Shown here piece after piece: positions 7,960 to 8,310 of a DNA stretch of 64,000 bases (the stretch's first letter is position 1; each line of letters begins with the position of its first letter). The translations under genes and the position numbers were made by a program. The DNA comes from Marvinbryantia formatexigens DSM 14469 (GTDB taxonomy: Bacteria > Bacillota > Clostridia > Lachnospirales > Lachnospiraceae): the NCBI RefSeq assembly GCF_025148285.1, contig NZ_CP102268.1:3141001-3205000 (forward strand), written 5' to 3'. Below the pieces are notes generated by a model. It was not told where the DNA came from. It searched no databases and saw only the letters and a program-made list of their open reading frames with translations.

Positions 7960-8310
7960 GGGCGAATGCCCAAAAACGAAGGAACGAAGTTCCTGAGTGT
8001 AGCACGGCGGAGCTGGCGAAGGCGTCATGGAGGATGTGCGTGCTGGCACGCAAACATCCGCGCATGGCGGTATTTTTATGGGACGAAAGTCCCAAACGAA
8101 GGAACGGAGTTCCTGAGTGTAGCATGACGGGGCGGAGAGAAGCCGTCGAAGGAACGAAGTTCCTAAGTGTAGCACGGCGGAGCTGGCGAAGGCGTCATGG
8201 AGGATGTGCGTGCTGGCACGCAAACATCCGCGCATGGCGGTATTTTTATGGGACGAAAGTCCCAAACGAAGGAACGGAGTTCCTGAGTGTAGCACGGCGG
8301 AGCTGGCGAA
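7960..8310. repeat. tandemly duplicated hairpin-rich element
   Basis: The region between the hydrolase gene and the nfeD-like gene is non-coding. About 146 bases at 7979-8124 recur nearly identically at 8149-8294 (period 170). Each copy holds several short perfect hairpins: GGAAC-GAA-GTTCC, GGATGT/ACATCC enclosing GCGTGC-TG-GCACGC, and GGGAC-GAAA-GTCCC, which has a GNRA-type tetraloop (8080-8093 and 8250-8263). A related GGGC-GAAT-GCCC opens the block at 7960. The roughly 40-base unit starting AAGGAACGAAGTTCCTGAGT occurs four times (7979, 8099, 8149, 8269). Function unknown; structured RNA or a REP-like mobile repeat are the main options. Confidence 0.85.

What the first reader, a model, noticed from the sequence alone, without database searches (positions are those of the whole stretch)
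7960..8310. Tandemly duplicated, hairpin-rich non-coding element with GNRA tetraloop
Seen: two 146-base copies at a 170-base period, each with at least three perfect hairpins, one closed by GAAA; a 40-base subunit occurs four times. Hairpin A also varies with compensating bases (GGGC/GCCC at 7960 versus GGGAC/GTCCC at 8080), which suggests selection on structure. It follows a terminator and precedes the nfeD promoter. Could be a novel structured ncRNA, or a REP/BIME-like mobile repeat.
Basis: seen in the sequence. Interest (0 to 1): 0.6.

Follow-up and report, generated by a model that had tools for sequence, protein, structure and literature searches.

The report
Folded interspersed repeat in gut bacteria
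The repeat is one reiterated member of a family of about 150-base folded elements, absent from the Rfam library, that are scattered in dozens of copies through genomes of Lachnospiraceae-type gut bacteria, mostly in the direction in which the neighbouring genes are read, and that look mobile.

Summary
The duplication is real (157 nt, 97%, period 170), but the element starts near 7880, not 7960; the 'terminator' at 7894-7956 is its first arm. Unit 7887-8008 folds as a closing stem around three arms (z -9.4). Covariance models find 45 matches at 34 places in the host genome, and matches in 27 of 60 genomes, host included, but only 2 of 149 phylum-wide: the host and one of its family. Covariation is massive. 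G-U cells outnumber A-C about 4:1, so one strand is selected. Copies lie in sense with both flanking genes 63 times, antisense to both 8 times, of 95 loci. Many start a fixed distance after a -10 box or terminator T-run, or at a gene's stop codon. The 3' half is reiterated downstream in 42 of 111 loci. Some congeners lack the element at orthologous sites. Clostridiales-1 (RF01699) is a sub-threshold relative. Best reading: a non-autonomous mobile structured repeat, BOX-like in kind, new as a family. Y1 transposase and reverse transcriptase do not track copy number. Effect on genes untested.

The parts
7877..7879 (+). TAA stop codon of the upstream cell-wall hydrolase gene (6542-7879), just before P1: the 'stop-codon' type of upstream context
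7879..7886 (+). 5' boundary motif AACAATGA (family consensus ..CGCGAAAGCAATGA, conserved from about -18 to -1)
7887..8008 (+). Complete copy A of the element (P1-P2-P3-P4-P1'), 119.7 bits with model R2, 132.1 with R1 (it is one of the sequences the models were built from)
7887..7893 (+). P1 5' strand GCCGTGC, pairs with 8002-8008
   Evidence: fold of 122 nt; covariation
7894..7956 (+).
7959..7972 (+). P3, TGGGC-GAAT-GCCCA hairpin
7976..7998 (+). P4, AC-GA-AGGAAC-GAA-GTTCCT-GA-GT hairpin with tandem GA/GA mismatches
8002..8008 (+). P1 3' strand GCACGGC
8015..8128 (+). Copy B1; its own P1 is CGTCATG 8023-8029 with CATGACG 8123-8129
8147..8178 (+). Extra 3'-half unit (P4 plus the A-type P1 3' strand) between copies B1 and B2
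8182..8298 (+). Copy B2, chimeric: B-type 5' end (CGTCATG 8193-8199) but A-type P1 3' strand (GCACGGC 8292-8298), so P1 cannot close as in B1
8349..8354 (+). TATAAT, presumed -10 box of the nfeD promoter downstream of the array (by eye)
   Evidence: nfeD 8390-8830

Best explanation
The interval is a tandemly reiterated member of a dispersed, non-autonomous, mobile repeat family of Lachnospiraceae-type genomes. The unit is about 150 nt: a 5' motif (..CGCGAAAGCAATGA), then a branched fold of closing stem P1 around arm P2 with a CUUG loop, arm P3 (GGGCGNANGCCC) and arm P4 with GA/GA mismatches. SHOWN by sequence: the family, its conserved extent, the covarying fold, strand-specific pairing, dispersal, sense orientation to neighbouring genes, three recurrent upstream contexts, polar 3'-half reiteration, and absence at some orthologous sites. 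INFERRED: copies arise by insertion at T-rich sites on the non-template strand that are opened by transcription (just after a -10 box, after a terminator T-run, or at a gene's 3' end), promoted in trans by an unidentified enzyme that recognises the folded strand. Sense insertion there leaves the neighbouring gene expressed. The 3' half (P3-P4-P1') is then copied in tandem by slippage or recombination. In the window the element probably entered between the hydrolase stop codon and the nfeD promoter in a common ancestor of this species and its congener G006, and was reiterated there into A-B-(half A)-B.
For: 45 matches at E<=0.01 at 34 places in one 4.58-Mb chromosome; 27 of 60 genomes positive, host included; 2 of 149 in a phylum sample, the host and one same-family genome. 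Covariation: 44 of 44 pairs with changes on both sides, 92.4% paired versus 34.6-45.0% slid (59 rows); in a second set 40 of 44 pairs, 88.0% versus 31.3-40.3% (95 distinct rows). G-U 84 versus A-C 23 and 103 versus 19. TATAAT (>=5/6) at exactly -23 in 35 of 123 loci, at most 4 at any other offset tested. T-run ends at -16/-15 in 17 of 116, at most 2 at other offsets; in-frame stop codon within -25..-1 in 33 of 116. Orientation 63 sense-sense versus 8 antisense-antisense of 95 loci (binomial 5e-12). 3' half repeated downstream in 42 of 111 loci versus 5' half upstream in 2 of 111. Copies of 83-100% identity over the match at different contigs of one genome, in unlike flanks. Element absent at the window site in G007, G001 and G002 and at the L064 site in G005 and G007. 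Direct repeats of >=9 nt around the element in 7 of 119 loci versus 1 of 119 mismatched pairs, five of the seven holding a -10-like box.
Against: No mobilising enzyme found: Y1 transposase and reverse transcriptase presence do not follow copy number. In the host genome no two copies at different places exceed 0.83 identity over model columns (33 host rows of A3, mean 0.525), so no recent move is visible there. Target-site duplications are visible in few copies; only 2 of 31 clear -10 copies pass the direct-repeat score, and one of the seven direct repeats (L189) looks like part of a second element. In one genome (L178/L221/L230) homology runs on to +51..+69, so the right boundary is not uniform. 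At the L060, L062 and L066 'empty' sites 5'-motif-like sequence remains, so these are decayed copies or pre-existing similarity, and G006 at L068 is an internally deleted copy. 35 of 116 loci show none of the three contexts. Shared left ends back to -28 may partly be shared -10 consensus. A3 and A4 were fitted to models that hold the structure; rows include orthologues and at least one sequence held twice (L087 and L238). The transcription-opened target is inference only.
Confidence: 0.68

Rival explanations
1. A cis-acting mRNA module (stability, processing or translation control) maintained by selection at transcript 5' ends, after terminators and in intercistronic or 3' UTR positions; dispersal is ancient and mobility incidental.
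For: Strand-specific covariation across very divergent sequences; sense orientation 63 versus 8; fixed offset from -10 boxes; seven loci with a T-box leader directly upstream on the same strand, among 37 distinct loci scanned, 17 of them chosen by me, mostly T-run loci; no recent moves in the host genome.
Against: No common gene function was seen beside the copies (by eye, no systematic test); model matches differ strongly between congeners (0, 0, 3, 8, 10, 15, 16, three of them 78-81% complete); the site lacks the element in relatives whose flanking genes are present.
Confidence: 0.35
2. An independent small-RNA gene family with its own extended -10 promoter acting in trans; promoterless copies are retro- or DNA-copied pseudogenes.
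For: Extended -10 consensus TGGTATAAT at fixed -26..-18 in 31 of 116 copies; Weinberg 2010 marks the distant relative Clostridiales-1 'y n n' in its table (passage), which I read as likely RNA, not cis-regulatory, not riboswitch.
Against: 85 of 116 copies lack a clear -10 box at that place; direct repeats that hold the -10-like box in L183, L228, L188, L211 and L177 suggest that it is target sequence rather than element; dozens of divergent copies per genome is unusual for a trans-acting RNA (general knowledge).
Confidence: 0.12
3. A transcription terminator that replaced the ordinary one between the hydrolase gene and nfeD.
For: G001 and G002 carry terminator-like hairpins with T-runs in this spacer; P2 in the window is followed by a short U-rich stretch.
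Against: In seven loci the element stands after a T-box leader in sense, where a strong terminator would silence the regulated gene; G007 has no such hairpin in the spacer at all; P2 is followed by a conserved AUA linker, not a U-tract.
Confidence: 0.08
4. A neutral local tandem duplication without wider meaning.
For: The window copies are 97% identical repeats at one place; a whole-interval BLAST in the host genome finds only itself.
Against: Structure-based searches find 45 matches, and the same 3'-half reiteration recurs in 42 of 111 loci.
Confidence: 0.02

Closest known systems
Clostridiales-1 RNA (Rfam RF01699; Weinberg et al. 2010, PMC2864571, passages seen)
   Same: Closing stem, long first arm with a UGCUUGCA apex, last arm with GA-rich internal loop and GAA loop (read); also dispersed, 16 copies over the cut-off in this genome with some in tandem.
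   Different: Window element scores 40 bits against a gathering score of 48; of 20 host loci of this family only one gave a match, sub-threshold; model R2 matches Clostridiales-1 copies mainly in arm P2 alone. Its ends are TGATGCC/GGCATCA, not GCCGTGC/GCACGGC.
BOX elements of Streptococcus pneumoniae (Croucher et al. 2011, PMC3049150, passages seen)
   Same: Small interspersed structured repeat, modular with an optional reiterated module, thought to be non-autonomous and mobile.
   Different: BOX elements are reported as overrepresented between convergent genes; this family lies mostly in sense between co-directional genes (63 of 95), with recurrent fixed upstream contexts and a branched covarying fold. 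Sequence homology was not tested.
REP/BIME/REPIN with RAYT transposase (PMC3733652 passages and abstract start seen; PMC3116915 abstract start seen)
   Same: Short palindromic repeats in many copies, dependent on a helper.
   Different: REPs are 20-40 bp palindromes tagged GTAG or CGTC; here three arms in a closing stem, and no relation to Y1 transposase presence.
Group IIC introns (site preference recalled; only abstract starts seen)
   Same: Placement directly after terminator T-runs.
   Different: Far too short, and no Rfam match to an intron at the loci scanned.

Membership tests
Clostridiales-1 RNA (RF01699) | Score at or above the curated gathering score (48 bits) | tested here: not met
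   Window element 40.0 bits; one further locus of 20 at 39.8
Clostridiales-1 RNA (RF01699) | P1-P2-P3-P4 architecture with UGCUUGCA apex | tested here: met
   Alignment covers model 1-166, with P3 and P4 poorly matched; read
BOX-type modular interspersed repeat | Dispersed short repeat in many copies per genome | tested here: met
   45 matches at 34 places
BOX-type modular interspersed repeat | A module that varies in copy number | tested here: met
   3' half repeated downstream in 42 of 111 loci
BOX-type modular interspersed repeat | Sequence homology to boxA/boxB/boxC | not tested
   No comparison was made; no claim of homology
REP/BIME (RAYT-mobilised) | Single short palindrome with GTAG or CGTC at its end | tested here: not met
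   Conserved foot is AATGA/ATTAA and the fold has three arms
REP/BIME (RAYT-mobilised) | Y1 transposase in the carrying genome | tested here: not met
   G002, G003, G006 and G020 have 8, 10, 15 and 11 matches and no PF01797 match at E<=1e-8; G006 is only 78% complete, the others 91-94%
MITE | Terminal inverted repeats | tested here: inconclusive
   P1 is a 7-bp inverted pair, but conserved sequence extends about 14-18 nt beyond it on the 5' side and only 3 nt on the 3' side
MITE | Target-site duplication | tested here: inconclusive
   Direct repeats >=9 nt in 7 of 119 versus 1 of 119 null; score-based test 4 of 109
Intrinsic terminator | Stops transcription in sense | not testable with these tools
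   Indirect evidence against, from T-box loci

The most novel reading that the evidence does not exclude
A mobile structured-RNA element whose insertion is directed by transcription itself: it enters the non-template strand at -10 boxes and terminator T-runs and at gene 3' ends, in sense, possibly as RNA or as the folded single strand, so that each new copy is transcribed and the target gene stays on (in some young copies the -10 box is duplicated on the far side).
Probability: 0.2. Interest if true: 0.8.

Novelty: new variant of a known kind. Interest (0 to 1): 0.52.

Why it matters
Rfam 15 gave no family for it at curated thresholds, although it occurs in dozens of copies in Lachnospiraceae-type genomes. 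Its sense orientation and its fixed distance to -10 boxes and terminator T-runs make it a handle on how small non-autonomous repeats choose sites and on what they do to mRNAs. The same genome carries its distant relative Clostridiales-1, typed in Rfam as an sRNA gene, in a dispersed and partly tandem pattern, which suggests that Clostridiales-1 may also be a mobile repeat.

Tried and rejected
Plain BLAST of the interval in the host genome found only itself. An exact 27-nt pattern of the window's P4 unit found nothing in the species-genome collection, which may leave out the host itself. A looser P3-P4 pattern found 102 stretches, of which the 80 listed were used; a similar one found none in the viral collection.

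IS200/IS605-type mobilisation: tested by Y1 (PF01797) presence in 29 genomes, no relation to copy number. Orientation relative to replication, with origin and terminus placed from the GC skew of 20 sampled stretches, is 19 co-directional against 12 (counted by hand; tandem arrays counted once, three of 34 places near the turning points left out), not significant. Reverse transcriptase (PF00078), same 29 genomes: no relation.

A hairpin in the 5' motif (GC-GAAA-GC) and a pairing of motif GCAA with the P2 loop UUGC were considered by eye; no covariation seen, dropped. Likeness of P1 to group II intron domain V: recalled only, no Rfam match, dropped. Clean absence is claimed only for L064 (G005, G007) and the window locus (G007; G001 and G002 with terminator-like hairpins there); the other comparisons are ambiguous. 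At the window locus G004 has the two flanks on different contigs and the spacer of G003 was not analysed.

Rows dropped: for flank counts only the best match of at least 105 nt per locus was kept, and loci too near a contig end (or, in the gene-orientation count, without two callable neighbours) were left out: from 126 loci to 111, 123 and 95, 116, 119 and 109.

Prior prediction: Fremin and Bhatt 2021 (PMC8040213, passages seen) report 3161 candidate structured RNAs from human microbiomes; their supplementary lists could not be read here, so this motif may be among them. Searches for a prior description; no listed title or abstract start showed this family.

Confidence in the best explanation lowered from 0.72 to 0.68 because of the last two.

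Full report
WHAT IS THERE. The interval holds two 157-nt direct copies, 97% identical, at spacing 170 (one search agrees). The true unit begins upstream of the reported start. RNAfold gives -67.4 kcal/mol, z -9.4, 0 of 200 shuffles as stable. Copy B1 (8015-8128) has a different but still complementary P1, CGTCATG/CATGACG, and its stretch folds less exceptionally (z -2.5, 2 of 200 shuffles). A half unit (8147-8178) and a chimeric copy B2 (8182-8298) follow. Neighbours: a cell-wall hydrolase with SH3 domain upstream (stop at 7879), nfeD and an SPFH/band-7 gene downstream.

RFAM. No family reaches its gathering score anywhere in the 64-kb window. With lax thresholds the best match to 7888-8007 is Clostridiales-1, RF01699, 40.0 bits against a gathering score of 48, E 2e-7; by the alignment the long P2 hairpin carries much of that score. 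The host genome has 52 Clostridiales-1 matches at E<=10, 16 over the cut-off; of 14 control genomes 4 ring at that loose E, none over the cut-off.

A FAMILY OF ITS OWN. From six related units (window, host loci L022 and L048, G006 loci L051 and L047, G026 locus L050) I built model R1. It finds 43 host-genome matches at E<=1, a few of them antisense overlaps of true copies, and positives in 27 of 60 genomes at E<=0.01: the host, 5 of 7 congeners, 17 of 28 other genera of the family and 4 of 24 genomes of other families of the order (my count). Model R2, built from 59 aligned matches, finds 45 host matches at E<=0.01, at 34 places if tandem copies are taken together (my count). In a phylum-wide sample R2 is positive in 2 of 149 genomes at E<=1e-5, the host and one same-family genome (strict filters, 24 candidates scored per genome). 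A 24-nt P3-P4 pattern has 102 stretches in the species-genome collection; of the 80 listed titles 50 say Lachnospiraceae, most others name genera that I recall as belonging there, and some say Clostridium, Ruminococcus, Acetivibrio, Eubacteriales, Clostridiales or, once, Bacteroidales. The viral collection has no match. Of 20 host loci of the family scanned with Rfam at E<=0.1, one (L070) gave a sub-threshold Clostridiales-1 match, and no other family matched at the element. R2 in turn matches Clostridiales-1 copies mostly in arm P2: 8 matches in 16 loci at E<=10, five confined to positions 8-70; the three full-length ones are weak (E 0.01-0.04), and two of these are the same copy seen in overlapping loci. 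The two families are alike in architecture but distinct.

STRUCTURE UNDER SELECTION. In A3 (59 rows, 33 of them host copies) all 44 pairs have changes on both sides; 92.4% of cells pair, against 34.6-45.0% slid and a mean of 59.8% shuffled; covariation score 0.766 against 0.06-0.14 slid. In A4, a second set of 95 distinct rows from named genomes, 40 of 44 pairs change on both sides and 88.0% of cells pair against 31.3-40.3% slid; P3 and part of P4 are fixed there by the pattern used to fetch the loci, so P1 and P2 carry that test, and one sequence (L238) also stands in A3 (as L087). Both alignments were fitted to a model, which leans towards the structure, and relatedness is not controlled. 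G-U cells outnumber A-C cells 84 to 23 and 103 to 19. As A-C on this strand is G-U on the other, the selected fold is that of the strand given, as RNA or as single-stranded DNA. A-G mismatches are commoner than either (108 and 305), part of them presumably from alignment in P2 and P4.

EXTENT AND CONTEXT. Upstream of P1 there is conserved sequence back to about -18 (consensus TTTT-CGCGAAAGCAATGA) and downstream only to +3 (44 and 45 loci); in the larger set the -10 box extends this to -26 (111 loci). Three upstream contexts recur (116 loci): an extended -10 box TGGTATAAT at -26..-18 (29 alone, 2 together with a stop codon), a T-run of five or more ending within -19..-12 (19, of which 17 end at -16/-15; 10 of the 19 follow a stretch folding with z <= -3, recount), and an in-frame stop codon of a preceding long reading frame within -25..-1 (31 alone, plus the same 2); 35 have none of these. 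TATAAT with >=5/6 matches stands at exactly -23 in 35 of 123 loci and in at most 4 at any other offset from -60 to -6. Gene orientation in 95 loci with both neighbours callable by a simple longest-ORF rule: 63 sense-sense, 15 only the downstream gene in sense, 9 only the upstream gene in sense, 8 antisense to both (binomial for 63 against 8: 5e-12). T-box leaders lie directly upstream on the same strand in seven loci: L057, L060, L067 (sub-threshold, 59.3 bits), L111, L112, L222, L202 (37 distinct loci scanned, 17 of them chosen by me, mostly T-run loci; L057 and L111 are probable orthologues). The element is therefore probably read through on the way to the gene.

REITERATION. A copy of the 3' half (last 55 nt) follows within 200 nt in 42 of 111 loci; the 5' half precedes in 2, the 3' half precedes in 1, the 5' half follows in 13, shuffled controls 0. 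The window array is one example of this polar habit.

MOBILITY. Copies at different contigs of one genome: L177/L188/L233 (98-100% over the match) share -33..+25 or about -27..+1; L178/L221/L230 (83-96%) share about -35..-27 to +51..+69; L195/L201 (93%) -28..+9, L182/L194 (90%) -28..+3, L171/L237 (89%) -23..+1. Left ends are fairly uniform (part of this may be shared -10 consensus), right ends are not. In the host genome itself no two copies at different places exceed 0.83 identity, the best being L057/L067, both after T-boxes. At the window site all eight genus members held were searched: G006 has a rearranged A/B array, G007 has no element between the stop codon and the nfeD promoter, G001 and G002 have terminator-like hairpins there, G005 has a short remnant-like stretch, G003 and G004 were not resolved. 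At L064 both G005 and G007 lack the element; G006 at L068 has an internally deleted copy; L060, L062 and L066 comparisons show loss of the body with some motif-like sequence left (seven comparisons). Direct repeats of >=9 nt around the element occur in 7 of 119 loci against 1 of 119 with mismatched flanks; five (L183, L228, L188, L211, L177) hold a -10-like box, one (L189) looks like a second element copy. A score-based test finds 4 of 109. Duplication of the target is thus visible only in a few, presumably young, copies.

WHO MOVES IT. Unknown. Y1 transposase (18 of 29 genomes positive) and reverse transcriptase (17 of 29) do not track copy number: G003, G006 and G020, with 10, 15 and 11 matches, have neither at the thresholds used (G006 is 78% complete), while several genomes without the element have one or both. 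These tests cannot exclude a helper lost since, or another enzyme class.

COMPARISON. In kind it is closest to the pneumococcal BOX elements, which are modular, structured, interspersed and thought to be mobile (PMC3049150, passages read), but homology was not tested and the distribution differs. It is not a REP/RAYT system by the two features tested. Weinberg 2010 (PMC2864571, passages) lists Clostridiales-1 with the marks 'y n n'. Whether Fremin and Bhatt 2021 (PMC8040213, passages) include this motif in their supplements could not be checked.

VERDICT. A real, structured, dispersed and probably mobile element family; the window holds a reiterated copy. New as a family in Rfam terms, of a known general kind, with unusual sense orientation and site fixation. 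Effect on genes and mode of movement remain inference.

Noticed in passing
host genome, L002-L017 (16 copies over the cut-off); C1:1520228-1520658: Clostridiales-1 (RF01699) is dispersed and partly tandem (period 173) in this genome, and several copies are followed by an inverted copy of their own 5' end (..TTTTGACCCcaACATCA), as in a mobile repeat with terminal inverted repeats.
   Followed up: partly
L111 1501-1624 and 1613-1772: In G006 a member of the new family is followed directly, and slightly overlapped, by a Clostridiales-1 match (93.4 bits) on the opposite strand.
   Followed up: no
L177, L188, L211 (JAMOZY01), L178, L221, L230 (CAMEWU01): Nearly the same AAATTATGGTTT sequence precedes the element in several loci of two genomes, and in L177, L188 and L211 also follows it; it could be a repeated target or part of another repeat.
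   Followed up: partly
window 7143-7409: The hydrolase gene upstream has a repetitive coding stretch (TRF periods 18, 36, 54, 90) encoding tandem ETEAYV/ETEPYV/ETEGYV units.
   Followed up: no
host genome: PF00078 at C1:543742, 1401102, 1629271, 2131800, 2350869, 3437578; PF01797 at C1:236397, 2992554, 3077360, 3324142, 4002835: Six reverse transcriptase and five Y1 transposase matches with identical scores within each set, suggesting recently amplified introns and insertion sequences.
   Followed up: no
L235 4442-4563: A strong member (111.2 bits) sits on a contig labelled as a Bacteroidales MAG; perhaps a binning or labelling error, not checked.
   Followed up: no
G005:C49:15433-15667: Upstream of pheS in this congener, three 73-nt partial matches stand in tandem at period 81 where the host has one full element.
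   Followed up: no
L083 1501-1650: One host copy has an enlarged P4 region with extra hairpins inside.
   Followed up: no
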